DNA of 57,072 bases from NCBI GenBank assembly GCA_030749235.1, contig JASMKM010000019.1:1-57072 (forward strand). The letters are read 5' to 3'. This document shows, piece by piece, positions 45,660 through 57,072 of this stretch. The position numbers and the translations under genes were made by a program. Source of the stretch: Planctomycetota bacterium (GTDB lineage Bacteria; Planctomycetota; UBA1135). How positions within the stretch are numbered: position 1 is the stretch's first letter; each line of letters begins with the position of its first letter. Below the pieces are notes generated by a model. That model was not told the DNA's origin and searched no databases. It saw only the letters and a program-made list of their open reading frames with translations.

Positions 45660-46566
45660 AGGCTTCGAGGGGTGCAGAGATTGGGACAAAAGTTGCGCTT
45701 GCAGTATAGCGACGGGACATCTCCTCAAACCATGCCCGCGCCTCAAGTGGGCCGACGGGATGTTCGCGGATATCCTCCAAGAGCACTGCCAACGGCGGCA
45801 GTGCCGCTGCGGCCGGCAGCACCTCAATGACACGGCCCGTCATCCAAGTGAAGTCGCCGGGCAACTGCAAGGGGCCGAGGACCTGGCCGACAACGGCATC
45901 GGCGAGCAACTCCCCTGCTTGGCCTGGTAGGTAATTGGCGATGGCAGGATAAGAGCCATCGGCCTCGGGGCCAGGGATTAAGGACTCGGTCAACATCGAC
46001 GCGGGGTTCCTACCGGACCTGAGGCTGCGTGCCCATGCCTCGGCCTGCTCCTCACTGCGACTCACCAACCACCACAACCTTGTGCGCCCAGTATGTATGG
46101 CGTCGGCGCGCAGTACCACCTGGTAAAGCAAGTTGTCTGCAAGATGACGACGATAAAGGGGACGCATCTTGGCCCATGCCTGTTGGTGTTGTTGCTGTGA
46201 CCAACTTTCCAGGTCACCGCCCGCACCGAGGCTTTGCAACAGGCTGTCCTCCAGGTCGGCGATGGTCCGGTCAATGGCCTCTTGCGGCAGGCGGATGCCC
46301 AACCGTTTGGCTTCGTGATGGGCAAACTCGCTACGCATCATGCTGCGCACCACCTCGGCACTCTGCTGTGGATAGACGAATTGCATCTCGGCCACGAAGG
46401 CGCTCATGTCTAGCCCGCTATCCTGCACGCGCACGCCATCCAACAACACGCCGCGGGTGGACTGCAGCAACACTCGATTACTCGGCGTGGACGATTGGCA
46501 GGCACTCAACAGCAGCACCGCACAGGCGGCACTGATGGCAAAGCGCGACGCAGCAACCAGGTTCAC
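45643..46566 (-). CDS. PrsA/SurA-like foldase lipoprotein
   Basis: A 307-residue lipoprotein (signal AACAVLLLSA, lipobox before Cys23). The N-terminal part (MSAFVAEMQFVYPQQSAEVV, EFAHHEAKRLGIRLPQEAID) is the helical substrate-binding arm of SurA/PrsA-type chaperones. The segment at about 160 to 255 (LWWLVSRSEEQAEAWARSLR and PGEADGSYPAIANYL-like continuation to TWMTGRVIEVLPA) matches a parvulin-type isomerase domain in layout, though catalytic residues are not clear. It starts with a GTG that interlocks with the stop of the zinc-motif protein (GTGA) and sits in the pseudopilin operon, so it may help fold those subunits. Confidence 0.72.
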   Translation of the reverse strand: MNLVAASRFAISAACAVLLLSACQSSTPSNRVLLQSTRGVLLDGVRVQDSGLDMSAFVAEMQFVYPQQSAEVVRSMMRSEFAHHEAKRLGIRLPQEAIDRTIADLEDSLLQSLGAGGDLESWSQQQHQQAWAKMRPLYRRHLADNLLYQVVLRADAIHTGRTRLWWLVSRSEEQAEAWARSLRSGRNPASMLTESLIPGPEADGSYPAIANYLPGQAGELLADAVVGQVLGPLQLPGDFTWMTGRVIEVLPAAAALPPLAVLLEDIREHPVGPLEARAWFEEMSRRYTASATFVPISAPLEAFVPIR

Positions 46567-48041
46567 TTGAAGGACACGCTGCGCCTAACCTGCACGCCAT
46601 GGCAAGTGGGGCACTTCTTGCGTTTCTTGCTCGAACCGCCCGATGAGGCCTCGATGGTTTCGAGAAAACCTTGGCCTGCGCAGGATGCGCACAAGGCGAA
46701 GCGCACGTTGACAATCTCATAGTCGCCAGAGAACTCCGCGTAGTATGCCAACAACCACTGGAAGCGCTGCGTGACGCTGGAGCGACGCCACCAATCCTCT
46801 GGACTGATGTCCTCGTCCTGGTTGGCCTTGGCCCGGCGTCCGGCCTCGAGGTTGTCCATGTAGCGCTTCATGCGCTCTTCCATCTTGCGCTGCTCCTCAG
46901 ACTTACCGTCGTTCTCGTCCTCGCCTTCGGCATCGCGCAAGCCAGCCTTGGCACGTTCCTCGCCGAGTACCCAAGAACCATTGCCAAAGCCTGCAGTATG
47001 CACGGTTGCTCCAATCTCCAAGCGAGCCAACCACCGTTCGTCGATGGTATCGAGGTTGAGGTCCTTGTCCATCGAGGTAATTTCGGTGAGCAGCTGCTGT
47101 CGAATCATCACCGGCAGCTCTCCTTCCAACCACGGCGTGACCTCATCCATTCGCAGGTCCTTATCCAAGGCCTTGCGCTTCAGTACTTTCAAGGCACGGT
47201 TGAACCAATGCCTTTCCAGATAACGGGTCACGGCAGCATCACGACGTCCGCCGAAGCGGTCGACGATGTCCAGGTATTCGCCACGCAGAGCGGCGCTCGG
47301 GAACATGCCGTCATAAGCTGCTAACATCTCCTCGGCCTCGGTAAAACGTTCTCGGTGCATCCGGTGACGGATGCTCTCGAGATACTCGGCCTCGGCACGG
47401 TTTGCGACTAGCTTCTCGACCTTGGTCACGGCACCAGCGACACGTTTGCTCAAGGCATCGTCGCCCTCGGCATCGGCCAAGGCACCACAGAGTTGATAGT
47501 GGGCCAAGGCCTGCTCTAACGCAAACATGACCTCGAGCTCTTGGGCAAAATCGAACTGCGCCATGGCATCGGTGGCATCGACCTGCGGCAGACGCTCGCC
47601 ATAGAACTGTTCCGGAGTGAGGATCGATGCAGCCTCGACCACGACGGGCTCCGGCGGTGCGGCCATCTGCTGTAGCGGCACCAATGTGGTAGTCTCGCCC
47701 GAACGCAGCTGGATGTTACGGTTGTCCTGCCGCATGATGCGGCCGATCAGCTCACGCCCGTTCGACAACAGAATGCGATGCGCAGTGGTCATCGGCACCT
47801 CGGCCTGGTTGCGGTAGCCAAAGGCATCGCGGAGACGATCGGCTTCGCCCGGGAATAGGTCGCTCCATGCCAGGGTGTAGCGGCCACCGTCACGTGCGGT
47901 GGTCAAGATGAAGCCATCGAGATTATGCTCGAGGATTGCGCCGACCAGCATGCGACCGTCACGCAGACGTACCACTTGATCGCCACCATCTTGAGGCATG
48001 GCGGGAAGTAGCAGGGTAGTTAACAGGAGTGGAAGAATCAT
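46563..48041 (-). CDS. Exported protein with two beta repeats and a DnaJ-like zinc motif
   Basis: A 492-residue protein with a signal peptide (LPLLLTTLLLPAM). Two similar small beta modules follow, about 22 to 75 (VVRLRDGRMLVGAILEHNLD, then GFILTT) and about 85 to 130 (RILLSNGRELIGRIMRQDNR), then a long helical region to about 420. The C-terminus carries Cys451-x-x-Cys454-x-Gly-x-Gly and Cys477-x-x-Cys480-x-Gly, the spacing of one DnaJ-type zinc centre. A zinc ribbon outside the cytoplasm is unusual. The ATG at 48041 lies 2 bases after the gspI stop. Its place between pseudopilins and a foldase suggests an assembly factor, but I do not recognise a family. Confidence 0.65.
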   Translation of the reverse strand: MILPLLLTTLLLPAMPQDGGDQVVRLRDGRMLVGAILEHNLDGFILTTARDGGRYTLAWSDLFPGEADRLRDAFGYRNQAEVPMTTAHRILLSNGRELIGRIMRQDNRNIQLRSGETTTLVPLQQMAAPPEPVVVEAASILTPEQFYGERLPQVDATDAMAQFDFAQELEVMFALEQALAHYQLCGALADAEGDDALSKRVAGAVTKVEKLVANRAEAEYLESIRHRMHRERFTEAEEMLAAYDGMFPSAALRGEYLDIVDRFGGRRDAAVTRYLERHWFNRALKVLKRKALDKDLRMDEVTPWLEGELPVMIRQQLLTEITSMDKDLNLDTIDERWLARLEIGATVHTAGFGNGSWVLGEERAKAGLRDAEGEDENDGKSEEQRKMEERMKRYMDNLEAGRRAKANQDEDISPEDWWRRSSVTQRFQWLLAYYAEFSGDYEIVNVRFALCASCAGQGFLETIEASSGGSSKKRKKCPTCHGVQVRRSVSFK

Positions 48042-48043
48042 GA

Positions 48044-48472
48044 TTATGGCTGCTGGGTGCGTCGCTCGATGGGAACGTCTCTCTCAAGCATAAAGGAAAC
48101 ACGCGTGAGCACGCGCTCGGGTGACTTGCGGTAGAAACGCAACTCGGCTCGACGCAAGGCCGGATTGTCGCCAGGAGGCCGCACGAAGAGGTCGAAACGG
48201 TATCCGGAGGCGCCTGGCACCTCGGTGCCGATGTATTCGCGCAATCCGGTAGGTGCACCGGAGGCGTCTAGCAGCCACGCATCGCGACGTAACTCAGCGA
48301 TCAGTGGCTCGATGGCGGGCGCCAATTCGGCGCGCACGCGGGCATCCTGCTCCATGTTGCCGCCCACTTGGAACAGGCCCAAGATGGCGGTAATGCCGAA
48401 CATGAAGATGGCGATGGCGATGATGACCTCGAGGATGGTGAAGCCTTGGTCGGAATTCTCCCAGGGGTTCAT
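48044..48472 (-). CDS. gspI: GspI-like minor pseudopilin
   Basis: A 142-residue type II secretion-type minor pseudopilin. The prepilin motif is G followed by FTILEVIIAIAIFMFGITAI: cleavage after Gly10, Phe at +1, Glu at +5, and a long hydrophobic helix with FMFG as often in GspI. The soluble part is short (GYRFDLFVRPPGDN, RRAELRFYRK). The ATG at 48472 gives a 10-residue leader. An in-frame TTG at 48511 interlocks with the gspJ stop (TTGA) and would give a 23-residue leader; the overlap pattern in this operon makes that a serious alternative. Confidence 0.82.
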   Translation of the reverse strand: MNPWENSDQGFTILEVIIAIAIFMFGITAILGLFQVGGNMEQDARVRAELAPAIEPLIAELRRDAWLLDASGAPTGLREYIGTEVPGASGYRFDLFVRPPGDNPALRRAELRFYRKSPERVLTRVSFMLERDVPIERRTQQP

Positions 48473-48507
48473 CTTTGCTGGCTTGACCGTGGCGCAAAGG
48501 AAGGGGT

Positions 48508-49419
48508 TCAATCCAGCCTCCTGCCGTCGGCGGCGATGCGATTGGTGCTCTCATAACGCGACGGCATATAGACCGGCGTGCGTTGAGCGTATTCCCCCGG
48601 CAAGGTGCCGCGTTCGCCGCGGGCACTGAAGCGGATGTTCGGGAAGGTGCCGTCGACCCGCACCCATTCATTGCCGATTGAAGCGTATTCGGGCAACTTG
48701 ATTGGCGCGATACCACGCAGGCGCACGGCCTCGGGTTCGCCGGCGATTGGATCGTCGAGGTTGGCCGGCTGTTTGCGCGCGTTACCTGATACGAACTCGA
48801 CGTTGAAGTCGATTACCGATGGGAAGTCGAACGGCATGTCGTTGTCAATGCGCAGGTTGCTGGTGCGTTGCCCATCGGTGTCGGTAGCGATGAACTCGGT
48901 CCACAACACGCCATCCATCACGGTCAAGCCTTCTCCATTACGCAACATCTCCTGCAATGTGCCGAGATCGCGCAAGCTACGCTGCGAGTTCTCGATGTTC
49001 GTGAAGCGCACCAATCGACCGAAACGTGAGGTGGCATCCTCGGGCACTACGGTCCACATGATCTCGACCGGTTCACGATTGCTGGGATCGATGTCGGTCA
49101 AGGCGGCACCGTCGGCGAGGAAGCGCACGCGCGGCAGGCTCCAGGCCAACACGCCTTCGCTGGCGGACCGCGCCTCCCAATGATCGACAATCAGCCAACC
49201 ACGCAAACCTGTATGCAAGGCGTTCAAGTCGCCGCGGAAGCGCTCCACCGCAGCAGCGAAGACCAAGTCCCCCTGGCCGCGGCGCTCGCCGCTGGACCAC
49301 AGGTTCACCACCGAGGTCATCACCTGCATGACGAAGGCCGACAGCACACCGAACAGAGCAAGGGCGATGACCAGCTCCAGCAAGGTCATGCCGCGACGCT
49401 TCTCAGCGCGCAGAATCAC
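48508..49419 (-). CDS. gspJ: GspJ-like minor pseudopilin
   Basis: A 303-residue pseudopilin with leader MILRAEKRRG and processed start MTLLELVIALALFGVLSAFV (Glu at +5). This is larger than the usual GspJ of about 200. A beta-rich soluble part runs from about 60 to 290, with PVEIMWTVVPEDATSRFGRL near the middle. The I versus J assignment rests on size and on the RGMTLLELVIAL start. The GTG at 49419 is firmly supported: it interlocks with the gspK stop (GTGA) and has AAGGAGG seven bases upstream. The frame opens 14 codons further, without support. Confidence 0.8.
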   Translation of the reverse strand: MILRAEKRRGMTLLELVIALALFGVLSAFVMQVMTSVVNLWSSGERRGQGDLVFAAAVERFRGDLNALHTGLRGWLIVDHWEARSASEGVLAWSLPRVRFLADGAALTDIDPSNREPVEIMWTVVPEDATSRFGRLVRFTNIENSQRSLRDLGTLQEMLRNGEGLTVMDGVLWTEFIATDTDGQRTSNLRIDNDMPFDFPSVIDFNVEFVSGNARKQPANLDDPIAGEPEAVRLRGIAPIKLPEYASIGNEWVRVDGTFPNIRFSARGERGTLPGEYAQRTPVYMPSRYESTNRIAADGRRLD

Positions 49420-52400
49420 TCCACCACCTCCTTGCTGTTCTCGACCCGAGTGGTCGCCCAATAGTTAAACATGATGTTGCGCAGGCGTGGCTCCATGGTC
49501 CAGCCGGTGGCGGTGTAGGTAGTCGGATCGAAGGCGCCTGGCCCCCAATCAAACATAAAGCGCGCATCCAGGCGATCGCTGTTGAGTTCCAACGATTGCG
49601 GCCCACCGCTGGCAGTACGCCCACGATGGAACTCAAGCAGGCCTGGCGTGGTGCGCGGATCATCTTCCCAATGGGCAAGACCGGCACGCACCAGCGCACG
49701 TACGGTAATCGAATTGTCCGGCAGCTCAGCCTGGTAGAACATCGATTGCCAATGAGCCTCGGGTTCCTCGAAACTGACCTGGAACCACGCACCGACACCG
49801 CTGTCGGAACGCGGGATGTAGTTATCCATCCAGCGGTTCGGGAAGGAAATCGCCACGCTGCCGTCGGCATGGTTGGCGATGTCGGTGCCGAAACGACCAC
49901 GTAACAAGCCTGTGCCGGGGTCGTCGTCGTCGTTGTCTCGCGTGCGCGGCATGCCGACGAAACCAGGACCGCGCATCGGTGCGTGCATCAGCTCCTGACC
50001 AATCAAGATCATGCCGGTGGTGGCGAATCCGTTGGTATCAGACAAGGGCACGTTCTCACTGCCGACTCCCATGCCACCGTTGAGTGCTACTGACGCACGA
50101 CCATCGACCATCCACACCCGCGTGCCGCGGCCATGGCCGCGCGCTTCGGTGCCCATCAAGCCGCGGCCATCCGGCGCGATGGTGATCTCGCCGTTGCTGA
50201 CATCAATCGCGTTGTAGGCGATGCGTTCGCCATCGATATCGAGGATGCCCGACTGCGGCATGAAGCCGAGATAGGTGCCTTGGGGCACGCCAGGCGTGTT
50301 CCAGCGACGACCGTCAAGCGACAGCTGCGAAGCGTTGACGGTGATGTTGCCCGCATAGGTGGCATCGAAATCCATCTCGAGGATCATCGCGCCGCGAGCG
50401 AACGGCCCGAGTACATTGCCCATGCCACCGACGTTATGCAGTGAAACCTCGTCTACTATGCCGCTGAACTCCGCTGCCGCACCACTGGTATCACCACCGA
50501 CGATGAAGTTGGCTAGATTGGCCGGCCGCTCATGATTCGGAAACTTGCTGAGGCGCGGGAATTCGCGCCAATCAGAATAGAACAGCGGCTCCTGCACCAG
50601 AGTCTGGTAGTCGTAGGATGTGACCGGGTTGTAGGTGGAATCCTCGAAGGCCACGTAGGTACAGCGAGATTCGAGACGCCCATCGTTCTCGCGCACCGCG
50701 GTCGCCCATTGCACCGTGTACCACAAGTTGGAGTTGGGACTCGTCGGATCCATCACCGCTACGCGGTCGAGGCGTCCAACGTACCCTTCTCCTGGAATGC
50801 TGTTCACCGCTTGGGCACCTGAGAACGGACGGATGGTCTTGAACACCGGCACAGCGCGATCGCCGGCGCTATGCGGATGGTCATAGGTGCCCATCACGCC
50901 ACGGAATTGCAGCAGCCATGAACGTTGCCAGATGGTGTAGCCTGCAGCGTCGGTATCACGCCCTTCCTCGGGATTGCCGATGGTCGGCCGTGAAGCCCAG
51001 ATATCCTCAGGATCCTGCTGCTGCATTGCTGGTGGCGCGGGGATCTCGTAGAGCGCCGGAGATACCACAATCGGGCCATCTGGAGAATCGGGTGCCTCAG
51101 GTGCATCTGGCCCCGATGGCGATGGCGGTTCCGCCGGTGGCTCGATATCGTCCTCCTCATCGTCCCACACCAATCCTTCCTGCATGCGATACAAAGCACC
51201 CCAATCATCACGCACGAAGCAACCATCGATGATGTTGTCGTAACGCACCCATTCGGTATTGGCCGGATCACCAGGAGCGGCTATCTGCACAACCTCAGAG
51301 CGGTTCGGCAGGCCTGGCATGTAGGTTACGTCGGTGGCGCCGCTGGTCTTCATTGAGATTGGCACGATGTAGACATCGAGCTGATGGATGTCACCGAGCA
51401 TGCGGCCGTCGGCGAGCTGCAGGTTATCCTCCCAGTTGGTAACGAAGGTGTTGCCGGCCTCGTTGAAAACCCCGTCGGTGGCTTCGACTACGCCCGGAGT
51501 CTGCACGTTGCGCTCGGCCAAGGTCAGCGTGGTGCCGACACGCGAGCTGTAGCGCACCACTTCCCACCCACCGATGCGGCTTTCGTCTTCGGCATTGCGC
51601 AGAGCCAGCGGTCCTTGGAACATGAAGGCATAACCACCATCGCTCTGGAAGGCCTCGGCGTAGTACTCGTCCTCGGCGTCAAAGCGCATCAACGGACTAA
51701 GTTCGATCGGCCCGAGGTAATCGCCGCTGATGCCCTGGCCCAGCCCAATCGGAAACAGCAACGGCGGGATCAGGGCAATGATCTCATCGATGCCGGTGGT
51801 GCAGGTGGCAATCGACCATGGCCCGACGTCGCCTGAAAGCGTATGACCACCAGGAGGCAGGCGTTCGAGAATCACCGTGGAGTAGCCGTAGAGTTCAACG
51901 CCGGCGCCCATTGGGTGCTCGGTGCCGGTGGCCAAGGCCAACAAGTCGGTGGCTTCCCGCAGCGAACGCCCGCCGAGGAACAAGGTGGGATCCCAATCTA
52001 GAACGAAGGAATTCGAGGTCTTGGAGCTGTAGTCGATTAATTCATTACCGATGCGTAGCACACCGCGATCGGGGAAGCCGTCGGTACTCTCGACATAAAT
52101 CTCGCCGCCGGCGGAAGCGGTCCATGCGTCCATAGCCTGGGTGAGATGGGTGAATCCGTCGATTTCGCCACGCGGTACGCCATCGATGCACACTTGCATG
52201 CCGCGCGCGGATTGGTTGCGCAAAGTCACCGAAATGTGGAACCAACGGTTGGTCAGGGCGTACTCGGCAAAGTCCAAGCGCTGGGTGATGGCTTCCTGCA
52301 GCGAGAAGGGGTCGCCCGGGTCCTCGCCGGTGGTGCTCCAACAACGCACGATCAACTCGTTGTTCTCGATCGCCACGCTGACCCGGTTGCGGTCGGTCTC

Positions 52401-54359
52401 GAAGCCGGCGAGGTCGAAGATATGGCCGTTGGTGAGGTTGTCGGCGCGGAACCACCCTTGGAAGTGCAACGGTTCAGCGTTGCTGATGGCGTTATCGTCG
52501 CCCACCCCCCAATCATTGAGCGGTTCGTTATAGGGCCCGAACTCGTTAATGTCGCGCCCCAGCGGCGAGGTTTCGTAATCGAAGTGTTCGGTACGACCAC
52601 GTCCATCGTGCGGGAAGCTATCGCTCTCACGTGCAGGCACCGGCACGATCGCACTGATCTCATGATCGGTCTCCGGCAGGCTGCGCCCTGGTCGGGTCAA
52701 AGCACCCACCTGCAAAGTCGGGCCGTTCAGCGGTTGACCGAAGTCGGTGGTGAAGCTGCCCATTGCATTCGGCAAGGTGGTCACGCCATGCAAGCCGCGT
52801 GACCATCGACCGAAGTCCTCGAAAACCTCCTGGCTGTTCAACAAGGAGATGGCCGGATCGGAGATTGCACTCGGCACGGCGTGCACGCGCTGCTCATAGG
52901 AGGCACGCGCCAAGGTGCGGCCGAGCCTAGAGCGGATTGCGGCATTGATGCGGTGTTGGTAGAGGTTGCCGCTGCGATACCCGAAGGAGGTCGTGCTTTG
53001 ACGCAAGCTACCGTTGTTGGGATCGATGCCATTGACATAGATTGCCCAAGCATCGATGTCGGTCAGCGAACCTTCGTCGGCCATCGGTGCGAGTACCCGC
53101 GCCCACAAGTCGGCCGGGCCCTGCAGCGGGCGCGCCGCCATCACGCGTTCGGTGAAGGCACGCGCTTCGGTCTCGCTGACCCATTCACGGCCCCGCGACC
53201 CCGACGTCTGGCGATCACTGACTACTGGCGGGTTGCCGAGGAAAGCTAAGCCGGTGACCATGGCGTTGAGCACTTCCGGCTTGCAGGCATTGATGTCGAT
53301 TGGCTCACGGCGCAGCGGATGTACGCGCGTCTGGAAAGGCACAAACCAGGTCGGCACCGGCGCCGACAGCAACAGACGGTTATTGAAGGCAACCATCACC
53401 AGGCGGTCGACGGCATCGGACAGATCGCCATCCTCTGGGATGATGCGGATTACGGTGCCGGCGTTGTACAGGCTGCCGTCACTGATCGAGATAATCTCGG
53501 GATTCTCGGGGTTGACCGCCCGCGTAAGCCAGCCGCCAGGTTCCCATTCGGCACTGCCATAGGAACCGGTGTCGAGACTGGCGAAGGATTGGATGCGACT
53601 CTTGTCGGCTTCTGGCAAGGTCTCGGCGTCGGCAGTGCCGAAATTGAAGTTCAGCATATCGCCGAAGAACTCGGGGGCGTGATGTCGGCCGGTTTGGAAT
53701 CGCGACAGCGCCAAGGCCTGAACGCGCGGGTCCTGGACCTCGCGCCCACGTCGGAAGCGAATCTGGTCGAGGTCTTCCGGTGCCTCTAGATCCTGCTGCA
53801 CTTCCGTGAACTTGCGCGCCTCGATACCGCCATAGACCACCCAGCGCGCACCAATCCACAACATGCCAGATTCCGGGAAACCATCGGTGGAAGTGACCTG
53901 GAGTTCACTGTCTCCATGGGAAGCGTCGGCAGTCAGGAAGCAGGGATGGATTAGGTTCTGCAGCAGCATCACCGGCGCAGTGGCCAGCGAAACCGTGGCC
54001 TGCACGCTCTGAATCTCTGCCCCCCACGCTTCGGTGCTCCCTTGCCAATCTTCACCGAGACTATGCGGCAGCGCTCCAAGCATGCTGCCATCCCATTCGT
54101 CGGTGGAATCCCACAGGGGTGTAGGGTCAATCGACGGGTGCGTGAGCGCTTCATGAAAGGCGGTCACGCGCGATGCCGAATCGACGGCGATGCGTGCACG
54201 CGAGCGATCGTAGGTCTCGCTGGCCGCTTCCGAACGCATCCTCGAGGCGAACAGGAAAGGGACGCCCAACGAGAACAACACCGCCAAGGACATCAACACG
54301 ACGAGCAAGGCGGCGCCGCGACGGCGCGCGCTGGCGGTGGACATCAGCCCTTTGCTCAT
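49416..54359 (-). CDS. gspK: Giant GspK-like pseudopilin with LamG and beta-repeat domains
   Basis: A 1647-residue protein; GspK normally has about 320. The N-terminus is GspK-like: basic leader ARRRG, then AALLVVLMSLAVLFSLGV with no Glu at +5, as typical for K. A helical segment with IDINACKPEVLNAM (355 to 367) matches the hairpin motif of the GspK helical domain. At about 630 to 740 lies a LamG/concanavalin-like domain (LHFQGWFRADNLTNGHIF, NRWFHISVTLRNQSARGM). A repeated beta motif of the form STDGFP-x-x-G-x-L-x-IG appears at about 157, 758 and 1441, the last followed by RGRFGTDIANHADGS. A Pro/Asp/Glu-rich linker spans 1066 to 1097, and a second LamG-like end (FSGIVDEVSLHNV) lies near 1310. 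It interlocks with gspH and gspJ by 4-base overlaps. Confidence 0.8.
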   Translation of the reverse strand: MSKGLMSTASARRRGAALLVVLMSLAVLFSLGVPFLFASRMRSEAASETYDRSRARIAVDSASRVTAFHEALTHPSIDPTPLWDSTDEWDGSMLGALPHSLGEDWQGSTEAWGAEIQSVQATVSLATAPVMLLQNLIHPCFLTADASHGDSELQVTSTDGFPESGMLWIGARWVVYGGIEARKFTEVQQDLEAPEDLDQIRFRRGREVQDPRVQALALSRFQTGRHHAPEFFGDMLNFNFGTADAETLPEADKSRIQSFASLDTGSYGSAEWEPGGWLTRAVNPENPEIISISDGSLYNAGTVIRIIPEDGDLSDAVDRLVMVAFNNRLLLSAPVPTWFVPFQTRVHPLRREPIDINACKPEVLNAMVTGLAFLGNPPVVSDRQTSGSRGREWVSETEARAFTERVMAARPLQGPADLWARVLAPMADEGSLTDIDAWAIYVNGIDPNNGSLRQSTTSFGYRSGNLYQHRINAAIRSRLGRTLARASYEQRVHAVPSAISDPAISLLNSQEVFEDFGRWSRGLHGVTTLPNAMGSFTTDFGQPLNGPTLQVGALTRPGRSLPETDHEISAIVPVPARESDSFPHDGRGRTEHFDYETSPLGRDINEFGPYNEPLNDWGVGDDNAISNAEPLHFQGWFRADNLTNGHIFDLAGFETDRNRVSVAIENNELIVRCWSTTGEDPGDPFSLQEAITQRLDFAEYALTNRWFHISVTLRNQSARGMQVCIDGVPRGEIDGFTHLTQAMDAWTASAGGEIYVESTDGFPDRGVLRIGNELIDYSSKTSNSFVLDWDPTLFLGGRSLREATDLLALATGTEHPMGAGVELYGYSTVILERLPPGGHTLSGDVGPWSIATCTTGIDEIIALIPPLLFPIGLGQGISGDYLGPIELSPLMRFDAEDEYYAEAFQSDGGYAFMFQGPLALRNAEDESRIGGWEVVRYSSRVGTTLTLAERNVQTPGVVEATDGVFNEAGNTFVTNWEDNLQLADGRMLGDIHQLDVYIVPISMKTSGATDVTYMPGLPNRSEVVQIAAPGDPANTEWVRYDNIIDGCFVRDDWGALYRMQEGLVWDDEEDDIEPPAEPPSPSGPDAPEAPDSPDGPIVVSPALYEIPAPPAMQQQDPEDIWASRPTIGNPEEGRDTDAAGYTIWQRSWLLQFRGVMGTYDHPHSAGDRAVPVFKTIRPFSGAQAVNSIPGEGYVGRLDRVAVMDPTSPNSNLWYTVQWATAVRENDGRLESRCTYVAFEDSTYNPVTSYDYQTLVQEPLFYSDWREFPRLSKFPNHERPANLANFIVGGDTSGAAAEFSGIVDEVSLHNVGGMGNVLGPFARGAMILEMDFDATYAGNITVNASQLSLDGRRWNTPGVPQGTYLGFMPQSGILDIDGERIAYNAIDVSNGEITIAPDGRGLMGTEARGHGRGTRVWMVDGRASVALNGGMGVGSENVPLSDTNGFATTGMILIGQELMHAPMRGPGFVGMPRTRDNDDDDPGTGLLRGRFGTDIANHADGSVAISFPNRWMDNYIPRSDSGVGAWFQVSFEEPEAHWQSMFYQAELPDNSITVRALVRAGLAHWEDDPRTTPGLLEFHRGRTASGGPQSLELNSDRLDARFMFDWGPGAFDPTTYTATGWTMEPRLRNIMFNYWATTRVENSKEVVE
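49427..49433 (-). promoter_or_regulatory. Ribosome binding site deciding the gspJ start
   Basis: AAGGAGG on the minus strand, seven bases before the GTG at 49419, inside the end of the gspK-like gene. Confidence 0.85.
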
Positions 54360-55360
54360 AGAGAGGCCTCCTGGGTGAAGCGCCCGACCACGAAGGTACC
54401 GATCTCCTCGTCCAGCTCCAACACCACCACCGGCACCGAGGTCGGATGCACGGCCGCATCCAGCATGCCATTGCGGTCGAAAAGCAGCGGCAAGCCCACT
54501 GGCAAGATCTCGATATTCTCGGGTACTTCGGGACCGGCTTCGGCGACTCGAGCCCAGACGGTGAATTCATCGAGCAAACCGACCCAACCTTTGTCGTCGT
54601 TACCGAGGATGGGCGCTGATCGCGGCGCCTGCAGGATTGGAGGGATCTCCATGCGGGCGACTTCCTGTCCGTTAATGCTCATCGCGAAACTTTGTTCCGC
54701 GGCGACCAGCTTCAGGTGTTGCCATTGGTTGATCTTCAGGCTGTCGGCCGGTGACTCCAGCAACATGTCTTGAAAAAACTCGCCATCACCGGCGCGCAAG
54801 GTTGCCGCAACCACGCCCGAGCGACGGATCTCGAGGTTCAGGAAGCCATCCCAGCCGAGCAGGTCGCCGCCGGTGCCAAGTTCACTGAAGAGGTCAAGGT
54901 CGAGGCCGAAGCCTTTGGTCAGGTCCGGCATGCCGCGCCCTTCGACGGTGATGGTGCCACCCTCGCGCAGGTCGGCGCAGCTGCCGAAGCGTCCGGTGGC
55001 GCCGATGGCTGCCGAGCCGGTGTACTGCAGGCCTTCACGCAACTGATAGGTCGGCTCAAAGGAGGCCTCCAGGGCGCGTCGGTAAACGAAGCGCATCAGG
55101 CGACGATCCTGTTCGGCAGTGGCAGGTATCTGCTTGACGCTAACAGGATGACCGGAGATGCGCGCACGGTCACGACTTCCCTCGAGGAAAGTCTCGATGC
55201 TGGCGCGCAGACCACGGTTACCAGGGTCGAAACGATCGATGCCGGCAACGCTGATGCCAGCCACCACCCCCAACACCACCATCACGATGATCAACTCGAG
55301 CAGGGTGAAGCCCGCAGAGCGCGATCGTGAGGAGGAACAAGATGGAAGCATGGCCAGCAT
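54356..55360 (-). CDS. gspH: GspH-like pseudopilin fused to a LamG-like domain
   Basis: A 334-residue protein; GspH is usually about 150 to 190. The prepilin motif is SAG followed by FTLLELIIVMVVLGVVAGIS (cleavage after residue 17, Glu at +5). A short GspH-like region follows (RASIETFLEGSRDRARISGH). Residues about 115 to 275 look like a LamG/concanavalin jelly-roll: LDLDLFSELGTGGDLLGWDG, then NQWQHLKLVAAEQSFAMSIN, ending in the very typical GLLDEFTVWARV. It lies 6 bases after gspG and interlocks with the gspK start (ATGA). GspH sits near the pseudopilus tip in known systems, so the lectin-like fold would be displayed there. GspH versus another minor subunit is judged from order. Confidence 0.78.
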   Translation of the reverse strand: MLAMLPSCSSSRSRSAGFTLLELIIVMVVLGVVAGISVAGIDRFDPGNRGLRASIETFLEGSRDRARISGHPVSVKQIPATAEQDRRLMRFVYRRALEASFEPTYQLREGLQYTGSAAIGATGRFGSCADLREGGTITVEGRGMPDLTKGFGLDLDLFSELGTGGDLLGWDGFLNLEIRRSGVVAATLRAGDGEFFQDMLLESPADSLKINQWQHLKLVAAEQSFAMSINGQEVARMEIPPILQAPRSAPILGNDDKGWVGLLDEFTVWARVAEAGPEVPENIEILPVGLPLLFDRNGMLDAAVHPTSVPVVVLELDEEIGTFVVGRFTQEASL

Positions 55361-55366
55361 GCTGGA

Positions 55367-55978
55367 TCAATCGGTAAACGAGTAGAGATCGTCGTCGGTG
55401 TTGAAGTAGCCGTCGGGCCCAGCCGAGACCAACTGGAAATCACTCGGCGCGTAGAAACTGTTGGTCACGCTGCTGCGTTGGGCAAAAACCACATCCTCTT
55501 CGAAATAACCGTCCTCGCCGGCAAGGGCCACGCAGCCGCTCTCGTCGGAATAATGCAGGCTCTCGAAGTAGAGAATCGGGTTACCCCATTCATCGCCGAT
55601 CTCGAACAAGGCGCGCGTACCGAGCATGGTCAGGTCGCGATTGGCCTCGTCGCCATCCGTGTTGACCAGCCACTCCTGAGACGGACGGGAACCGGTGTAC
55701 CTGGAATCAAACAAGGCAAGGAACAGGGCCTCGGCGTTGGAGTTCTTGGCGTTCATCGCCACCCCCTTGGCCAAGCGATCGTCCGGATACTCGCCTTCGA
55801 TGTTGCGATACTCGCGGATCATCGCGCTCAAGGAACGCAACTTGGCTTGTGCCGCCTTGGCCTTACTGTCGCCGAAGATGTTGCCGCCGAAACCGACGAA
55901 GACAGCGCTCAACACACCGATGATGACCAACACAATCATCAACTCCAACAGGGTAAATCCGTTTGCTCTGTATCTCAT
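55367..55978 (-). CDS. gspG: GspG-like major pseudopilin
   Basis: A 203-residue major pseudopilin. It has a short leader MRYRANG and the processed start FTLLELMIVLVIIGVLSAVF with Glu at +5. After the long helix there is a variable loop (KLRSLSAMIREYRNIEGEYP). The C-terminal GspG beta sheet with the calcium-binding loop follows: DEWGNPILYFES and later SAGPDGYFNTDDDLYSF, the family's calcium signature. It is longer than the usual 140 to 150 because of an insertion between these parts. It begins with an ATGA overlap with the TPR/LamG-like gene and is followed by the minor pseudopilins in the order H-K-J-I. Confidence 0.92.
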   Translation of the reverse strand: MRYRANGFTLLELMIVLVIIGVLSAVFVGFGGNIFGDSKAKAAQAKLRSLSAMIREYRNIEGEYPDDRLAKGVAMNAKNSNAEALFLALFDSRYTGSRPSQEWLVNTDGDEANRDLTMLGTRALFEIGDEWGNPILYFESLHYSDESGCVALAGEDGYFEEDVVFAQRSSVTNSFYAPSDFQLVSAGPDGYFNTDDDLYSFTD

Positions 55979-57072
55979 TGCTGCGCGAAGATCATCTCGA
56001 CGTTATCGATGCTGGCGTTAACGTCTAAGGCACCGGAAGTGGCCACGAACAGGCCACAGGCCATGCGGCCAGTCGGGTTTCGTAGGTTCGAGACCTGATC
56101 GGAGTACAGGACCTCGTCATTGAACCAGACGGTCAACACCGGCTGGTTGGCTTCGCGATTGACGCTGAAGCGCACCCGCCCGCTCTCGCCTTCCCGCAGT
56201 TGGAAACGCGTGACCACCGGTGGATCGACCCGCGTACCGCGCGACATCTCGTAAGTAATCTTGCTCTCGCGATCGCGGAACACGCGGAAATACCAAGTCT
56301 CCTTGTTGCGGTTCTGCAAGGCGATGTATGCGCCAGCCTCACCACGATGACCACTGCCGACATTCAGGTCAGTGGTGAAATCGCGGAAAGAGATGCCGGG
56401 CACGGTGCGGAAAGCCTTGGTCTCGCCGACGCCGGAGTGGCGTCCACTGACCCAGAAGGCGCCCTCCTCGAGACGGGGCTCCACCCCCAGGCGTGCGGCT
56501 TCCTGGGTATCCCAACCCGCGCGTAGGCGTCGGCCTTCGAAGGCGTCAACCCAGAGGCGCAAGCGAGCATGTTCCTCGACGCGGGCTTGCCAAATCCGGG
56601 CATATTGGGCCTGCGGATGATTCTCGGTCTCGCGCAAACTGTCCTGCAGGTACGCGAACTCGGCGATGGTGGCGTCGAAATCACCTTCGCGGTAATAGGC
56701 CATGCCCTTGGCGTTACGCGCGGCATGCAGCTCGGCATCCATGGACAAAGCCTGATCAAAGCTGGCCATGGCCAACTCCAGCTCGCTCAAGGCGAGGAAG
56801 TTTAGGCCGCGACGCAAAGTCAAGCCTGCCCATGCAGGTGCCGAAGGCGAGTTCAGTACGCCTTCGGGGAACAGCTCCTCGAGCCGACGGAAGGCTACCT
56901 CGGCCTGCACCTGCGAACCATCGGCGTACAGCAAGGAACTGAACTCGGCCAACACCGCTGCGCAGTTCGGCTGGATCCGTACCAAAGATTGCAACTCCTG
57001 GCGTGCGGCTTCGCTGTCGCCATCACGGGCGGCCCAGTTCGCCTTCAGGTACCGCGAGTAAAAGTGTTGCGG
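55975..57072 (-). CDS. TPR protein with C-terminal LamG-like domain, N-terminus outside window
   Basis: The frame is open to the right edge, so the true start is not visible; the in-frame TTG at 56994 is probably internal. The visible 365 codons hold TPR helices (RYLKANWAARDGDSEAARQE and FDQALSMDAELHAARNAKGM with YYREGDFDATIAEF). From about residue 180 to the end there is a beta-rich domain resembling a concanavalin/LamG jelly-roll (GEAGAYIALQNRNKETWYFR, EGESGRVRFSVNREANQPVL, ending ASIDNVEMIFAQQ). It interlocks with gspG by ATGA and so belongs to the pseudopilin operon. A role as scaffold or ligand-binding partner of the pseudopilus is inferred. Confidence 0.75.
   Translation of the reverse strand, partial: PQHFYSRYLKANWAARDGDSEAARQELQSLVRIQPNCAAVLAEFSSLLYADGSQVQAEVAFRRLEELFPEGVLNSPSAPAWAGLTLRRGLNFLALSELELAMASFDQALSMDAELHAARNAKGMAYYREGDFDATIAEFAYLQDSLRETENHPQAQYARIWQARVEEHARLRLWVDAFEGRRLRAGWDTQEAARLGVEPRLEEGAFWVSGRHSGVGETKAFRTVPGISFRDFTTDLNVGSGHRGEAGAYIALQNRNKETWYFRVFRDRESKITYEMSRGTRVDPPVVTRFQLREGESGRVRFSVNREANQPVLTVWFNDEVLYSDQVSNLRNPTGRMACGLFVATSGALDVNASIDNVEMIFAQQ

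What the first reader, a model, noticed from the sequence alone, without database searches (positions are those of the whole stretch)
48044..57072. Pseudopilin operon in which several subunits carry LamG/lectin-like domains
The sequence shows a full G-H-K-J-I pseudopilin set with correct prepilin motifs: Glu at +5 in G, H, I and J, and absent in K. The H-like subunit, the giant K-like subunit and the protein encoded just before gspG all contain segments that look like LamG/concanavalin jelly-rolls (for example GLLDEFTVWARV in H, NRWFHISVTLRNQSARGM in K). Known GspH/K tip subunits do not carry these. Inference: a pseudopilus or fibre whose tip binds glycans or another surface, used for attachment or polysaccharide uptake rather than plain secretion. 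This is the best candidate here for an undescribed system.
Basis: partly seen in the sequence, partly recalled or inferred. Interest (0 to 1): 0.8.

Follow-up and report, generated by a model that had tools for sequence, protein, structure and literature searches.

The report
Planctomycete pseudopilus operon with lectin-like tips
Most of the Planctomycetota genomes sampled here carry a giant version of a secretion-filament tip protein, and in nearly all places examined it sits in a conserved gene cluster for a secretion-type filament whose tip proteins contain sugar-binding-type (LamG) folds, a candidate machine for how these bacteria grip or export large molecules.

Summary
The window is a whole contig of a Planctomycetota MAG. 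Its right end abuts contig C34, giving FHA – PilM/PilN-fusion (GspL-like) – M – TPR protein – G – H – K – J – I – zinc-finger protein. The core order L-TPR-G-H-K is kept in 42 of 45 K-bearing loci examined. H is a GspH pseudopilin with a LamG jelly-roll inserted in its fold (AlphaFold pLDDT 88; LamG in 41/43 homologues across the phylum). K is a GspK with a ~1,100-residue extension holding one confirmed LamG. Giant K occurs in 171 of 294 sampled Planctomycetota genomes. The operon has no motor, but K-bearing genomes usually carry a separate GspD-E-F-G-H-I-J operon (147/171 versus 15/123 without K; not corrected for phylogeny) in which no K, L or M was found. I read it as half of a split type-II-secretion-like machine with a modular tip. 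Lectin-bearing pilins are known (S. sanguinis PilC), so this is a new variant of a known kind. No ligand or function is shown; a link to planctomycete dextran-binding fibres is only a hypothesis.

The parts
55975..57072 (-). C-terminal 365 residues of a ~900-aa protein (N-terminal membrane anchor and RD[LPV]F/proline-rich stretch seen in relatives, TPR repeats, C-terminal possible jelly-roll); truncated by the contig end
   Evidence: rest of the gene on G000:C34
55367..55978 (-). GspG-like major pseudopilin (203 aa)
   Evidence: N_methyl 3.5e-8, T2SSG 0.0099 below cut-off; TIGR01710 gspG 9.6e-11, below cut-off
54356..55360 (-). GspH-like pseudopilin with an inserted LamG domain (334 aa)
   Evidence: N_methyl and Laminin_G_3 both over cut-off; TIGR01708 gspH 2.7e-6, below cut-off; AlphaFold pLDDT 88.2; Foldseek
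54521..55087 (-). LamG/concanavalin-type jelly-roll of the H subunit (about residues 92-280), flanked by short GspH-type strands at 73-78 and 309-325
49416..54359 (-). Giant GspK-like tip pseudopilin (1647 aa), no Glu+5
   Evidence: GspK core: T2SSK in 18 of 39 homologues, NF037980 T2SS_GspK to 1.3e-14 in distant homologues, below the curated cut-off
52740..54359 (-). GspK-like core of K (residues 1-540), with helix-hairpin-helix stretch REPIDINACKPEVLNAM
52140..52487 (-). LamG stretch of K (about residues 625-740)
50370..50912 (-). Second putative jelly-roll of K (about residues 1150-1330); not confirmed by sequence
48508..49419 (-). GspJ-like pseudopilin; the ORF opens at 49461, a start near 49419 is more likely from the homologue in L058
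   Evidence: N_methyl 1.3e-6; TIGR01711 gspJ 0.0062, below cut-off
48044..48511 (-). GspI-like pseudopilin
   Evidence: N_methyl 2.7e-6; TIGR01707 gspI 0.0027, below cut-off
46563..48041 (-). 492-aa protein with DnaJ-type CXXCXGXG-like C-terminus, a common downstream member of the cluster
   Evidence: weak DnaJ_CXXCXGXG 7.4e-4, below cut-off; kept next to I in the family- and order-level loci and most of the distant loci

Best explanation
This is the second half of a split, type-II-secretion-like type IV filament machine of Planctomycetota. One operon supplies secretin, ATPase, platform and a plain pseudopilin set (GspD-E-F-G-H-I-J). This operon supplies a PilM/PilN-fusion L, an M, a TPR protein with a GspC/PilP-like N-terminus, an FHA protein, and a second pseudopilin set G-H-K-J-I. 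By analogy with other HIJK tip complexes, H and K sit at the tip of a pseudopilus and present LamG modules, either to the substrate in the periplasm and secretin or to something outside. Shown: gene content, order, conservation, folds, co-occurrence of the two operons. Inferred: that the two operons work together, the tip position, that the modules bind a ligand, and the identity of that ligand.
For: Core order L-TPR-G-H-K kept in 42 of 45 K-bearing loci. LamG in H in 41 of 43 homologues, AlphaFold pLDDT 88 and Foldseek to jelly-roll domains. K is GspK-related with LamG. L is a PilM-PilN fusion (PilM 3e-42, PilN 1.9e-7). M has one N-terminal hydrophobic segment and a marginal T2SSM match in one of 31 members. 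D-E-F-G-H-I-J operon in the genus and in distant genomes, with no K, L or M found beside it in K-bearing genomes, apart from weak L-like hits in two loci. Presence of that secretin in 147/171 genomes with K versus 15/123 without. Own genome holds its D, E, F, G, H, I, J pieces and a prepilin peptidase.
Against: Co-occurrence is not corrected for phylogeny. 24 genomes with K lack a strong match to that secretin. The D-E-F operon already has its own G, H, I and J, so the second set may belong to another motor, such as the E-PilT-E-F cluster (L200), which is also widespread and occurs in genomes without K. The GspC likeness of the TPR protein is my reading of a motif and was not tested by a family match. 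No ligand-binding residues were examined.
Confidence: 0.55

Rival explanations
1. A surface-exposed type IV pilus-like fibre used for attachment or polysaccharide capture, powered by the widespread E-PilT-E-F cluster (with retraction), with LamG tips as glycan adhesins.
For: S. sanguinis PilC shows that a concanavalin-type lectin module on a minor pilin binds glycans (PMC9934059). Planctomycetes have pili-like fibres that bind dextran (PMC5394234). The E-PilT-E-F cluster has no pilins of its own in L200. Nearest folds to the H LamG include an arabinanase accessory domain.
Against: The E-PilT-E-F cluster also occurs in complete genomes without K (G070, G093, G079), while the GspD-E-F operon tracks K. 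LamG folds also bind proteins, so glycan binding does not follow.
Confidence: 0.2
2. A self-contained third machine whose motor is shared or variable; the LamG modules are structural, holding the H-K tip together rather than binding a ligand.
For: Conserved LamG columns in H are mostly glycine, tryptophan and aspartate of the fold, with low identity elsewhere. Three K genes stand alone without the rest (L217, L226, L228).
Against: GspH and GspK of studied systems assemble without such modules; H and K sequences diverge strongly, as expected of ligand-facing domains (interpretation).
Confidence: 0.15
3. Ordinary type II secretion system with decorated pseudopilins, exporting hydrolytic enzymes, with no special tip recognition.
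For: Complementary gene content of the two operons and association with the GspD-E-F operon.
Against: Two complete pseudopilin sets, a giant K and inserted LamG modules kept across the phylum are hard to explain as decoration.
Confidence: 0.1

Closest known systems
Modular type IV pilins, especially PilC of Streptococcus sanguinis (lectin module) and PilB (vWA module)
   Same: A pilin-type subunit carries a concanavalin/LamG-type module; PF13385 is listed among the common modules grafted on pilins, and a Planctomycetes protein is among the 15 example proteins of that survey (PMC8179133, PMC9934059).
   Different: Those modules are appended at the C-terminus of small T4P minor pilins; here the module is inserted inside a GspH fold, a second sits in a giant GspK, and both lie in a conserved T2SS-like operon of a phylum.
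Type II secretion system pseudopilus tip (GspH-I-J-K)
   Same: Order and motifs of G-H-K-J-I, Glu+5 present in all but K, GspK-type core, GspL/M-like partners, associated GspD-E-F operon.
   Different: Giant K, LamG in H and K, PilM-PilN-type L, FHA and TPR members, genes split over two loci, two pseudopilin sets.
Verru_Chthon cassette (TIGR02596-TIGR02600) and hormogonium polysaccharide Hps pseudopilins
   Same: Pilin-type cassettes with a very large member (from memory for Hps); one distant K matches Verru_Chthon_A over 59 residues at E=0.0014, far below its cut-off.
   Different: The match is confined to the prepilin N-terminus; no evidence of shared large domains.
MSHA-associated MshQ (LamG_3-containing, from memory)
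   Same: LamG-type domain encoded in a type IV pilus locus.
   Different: Not a pseudopilin as far as I recall; not tested here.
Dextran-binding pili-like fibres of crateriform structures in Planctopirus and Gemmata (PMC5394234)
   Same: Planctomycetes; fibres that bind a polysaccharide; genes not named in the passages read.
   Different: No evidence that this operon makes those fibres; presence of the operon in those named species was not tested.

Membership tests
Type II secretion system | Pseudopilins G, H, I, J with class III signal peptide and Glu+5, K without Glu+5 | tested here: met
Type II secretion system | Matches over curated cut-offs to gspG/H/I/J/K families | tested here: not met
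   All GspG-K NCBIfam matches lie below their cut-offs; only N_methyl passes
Type II secretion system | Secretin GspD, ATPase GspE and platform GspF in the genome | tested here: met
   on other contigs, not in this operon
Type II secretion system | GspL and GspM assembly-platform partners | tested here: inconclusive
   L is a PilM-PilN fusion; M has one hydrophobic segment and only a marginal T2SSM match
Type II secretion system | GspC with HR domain linking platform to secretin | tested here: inconclusive
   No GspC family match sought on the N-terminus; an RD[LPV]F plus proline-rich stretch after a single hydrophobic segment was seen by eye
Type II secretion system | Exports folded proteins through the outer membrane | not testable with these tools
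   needs a secretome of a deletion strain
Modular pilins (lectin type) | Pilin N-terminus joined to a concanavalin/LamG-type module in one protein | tested here: met
Modular pilins (lectin type) | Module binds glycans | not testable with these tools
   no ligand assay; binding residues not examined
Type IV pilus with retraction | Dedicated PilT retraction ATPase with the system | tested here: inconclusive
   No PilT in or beside the operon or the GspD-E-F operon; PilT genes exist elsewhere in the genomes
LamG domain (K residues 1150-1330) | Sequence match to a LamG family or profile | tested here: not met
Verru_Chthon cassette | Full-length match to TIGR02600 | tested here: not met
   only 59 N-terminal residues at E=0.0014 in one of five distant K proteins

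The most novel reading that the evidence does not exclude
The operon encodes the polysaccharide-capturing fibre of Planctomycetota: a pseudopilus with LamG tips that binds glycans outside the cell and takes part in bringing large polymers into the periplasm, the unidentified dextran-binding fibres of the crateriform structures.
Probability: 0.1. Interest if true: 0.9.

Novelty: new variant of a known kind. Interest (0 to 1): 0.6.

Why it matters
If the reading is right, much of a large bacterial phylum has kept a filament machine split over two operons with lectin-type folds at its tip, which I did not find described. It would extend the modular-pilin idea from type IV pili to the H and K tip of a secretion-type pseudopilus, and it gives a concrete gene set to test against an open question: which genes make the polysaccharide-binding fibres of planctomycetes and how these cells handle large polymers.

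Tried and rejected
Idea of a tandem pair of LamG domains in K: kept as a hint only, since the second region fails sequence tests. Idea that the TPR protein's C-terminus is LamG: not supported by Pfam. Idea that the E-PilT-E-F cluster is the dedicated motor: weakened by its presence in genomes without K. Foldseek hits of both models to clostridial toxin receptor-binding domains reflect the common jelly-roll fold at about 10% identity and were given no functional weight. Literature searches for planctomycete pseudopilin or LamG pseudopilin returned nothing on this operon; the library lacks most subscription papers.

Full report
What is in the window. The window is a complete contig (C19) of a 2.4-Mb, 123-contig genome. 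On the minus strand, five ORFs follow each other with little or no gap: G-like (55367-55978), H-like (54356-55360), K-like (49416-54359), J-like (about 48508-49419) and I-like (48044-48511). Upstream of G lies the C-terminal part of a TPR protein cut by the contig end.

Completing the operon. The nearest relative (L058, H and K 87-89% identical) shows the upstream genes: an FHA protein, a PilM-like protein, a 260-aa protein and a 899-aa TPR protein. In the window's own genome the same four genes, with the first 539 residues of the TPR protein, lie at the edge of contig C34, and the two contig ends share 17 bases (GAGTAAAAGTGTTGCGG), so they very probably abut. The full order is FHA - L - M - TPR - G - H - K - J - I - zinc-finger protein. 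The 24-sequence L profile matches PilM (E=3e-42) over its first part and PilN (1.9e-7) after it, so L is a PilM-PilN fusion, the arrangement of GspL. M has one hydrophobic N-terminal segment and a marginal T2SSM match in one member. The N-terminus of the TPR protein has one hydrophobic segment in most members followed by RD[LPV]F and a proline-rich stretch; I take this as GspC/PilP-like, by eye only.

H. The profile of 27 H proteins matches two separate things in the PDB: pilin N-termini at residues 3-63 and LamG domains of neurexin (3.5e-9), laminin and thrombospondin at residues about 145-264. AlphaFold with that alignment gives mean pLDDT 88.2, and Foldseek places the central part among jelly-rolls, first the accessory domain of a GH43 arabinanase (E=4.4e-8), also neurexin LNS and thrombospondin. 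In the model, strands at 73-78 and 309-325 flank the jelly-roll, so I read it as inserted within a GspH-type fold. Laminin_G_3 is found in 41 of 43 H homologues from across the phylum. The plain GspH of the other operon in the same genus is 182-184 aa, too short to hold such a domain.

K. The first ~540 residues are GspK-like: T2SSK in 18 of 39 homologues, NF037980 T2SS_GspK up to 1.3e-14 in distant members but below the curated cut-off. The remaining ~1,100 residues model well (pLDDT 83.2) and match tandem LG pairs such as laminin LG4-5 and neurexin in Foldseek, with poor overall superposition. By sequence only the stretch at about 625-740 is LamG (27 of 45 members; hhalign to the H LamG 96.6%). 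The region at 1150-1330 fails. A short module with GFP..G.L.IG.E.I.Y and RG..GT..H..G recurs three to four times in most K proteins; shuffled sequences gave no hits.

TPR C-terminus. Evidence for a jelly-roll is weak: hhalign to H LamG 82.7%, E=9.5e-6; one Pfam LamG match in 43.

Distribution. H and K are found throughout the family and order. A K profile finds matches at E<=1e-10 in 171 of 294 Planctomycetota genomes drawn evenly, 126 of 209 genera. Among 45 loci that I fetched for carrying K, 42 keep the order L-TPR-G-H-K; three have K alone. A scan of GTDB species representatives returned 72 loci; those with informative titles are Planctomycetota, apart from one MAG labelled Candidatus Kuenenia, also of that phylum, and some labelled only 'bacterium'. 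That scan used two short patterns, so absence elsewhere is not shown.

Which motor. The operon has none. The genus has three ATPase loci: a GspD-E-F-G-H-I-J operon, an E-PilT-E-F cluster, and a PilMNOPQ-type locus. The first is present in the two complete genomes Pla86 and Poly30 and in distant genomes, without K, L or M found beside it apart from weak L-like hits in two loci. Its secretin is found at E<=1e-100 in 147 of 171 genomes with K and 15 of 123 without (Fisher p about 4e-39, but genomes are related, so the p-value overstates). Several of the 15 belong to families in which K scores close to its threshold. The E-PilT-E-F cluster also occurs in complete genomes without K. I therefore favour the GspD-E-F operon as partner, at moderate confidence. 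The own genome has pieces of that operon on C38, C107 and C116 and a prepilin peptidase on C101.

Function. Tip position of H and K rests on other systems, where HIJK form a tip complex capped by K (PMC9934059). Lectin modules on minor pilins bind glycans in S. sanguinis, and PF13385 pilins were catalogued before, with a Planctomycetes protein among the survey's examples. Planctomycetes have pili-like fibres that bind dextran (PMC5394234). None of this shows that the present modules bind sugars; LamG folds also bind proteins.

Verdict.

Noticed in passing
window 57056-57072 and G000:C34 left end (L250 1-17): The window's right end and contig C34 share 17 bases and split one TPR gene, so the assembly breaks inside this operon.
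   Followed up: yes
L194, L195, L198, L230, L232, L233, L239, L248: A GspD-E-F-G-H-I-J operon (or its D-E-F part) with no K gene found beside it, recurring across Planctomycetota.
   Followed up: partly
K protein, window residues 152-204, 753-789, 1437-1506 (and about 1362-1412): A short repeated module (GFPxxGxLxIGxExIxY ... RGxxGTxxxxHxxG) in K, three to four copies in most homologues; one weak Pfam hit is to the C-terminus of a gene-transfer-agent tail protein.
   Followed up: partly
L080/L201 (G000:C53, G043:C62): A PilMNOPQ-type locus whose ATPase ORF is about 650-690 aa with an extra N-terminal part that looks like a STAS domain by eye.
   Followed up: no
window 46563-48041: Downstream 492-aa protein with a DnaJ-type zinc-finger-like C-terminus, usually next to I in relatives; function unknown.
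   Followed up: no
L217, L226, L228: Giant K genes standing alone, without the pseudopilin operon around them.
   Followed up: no
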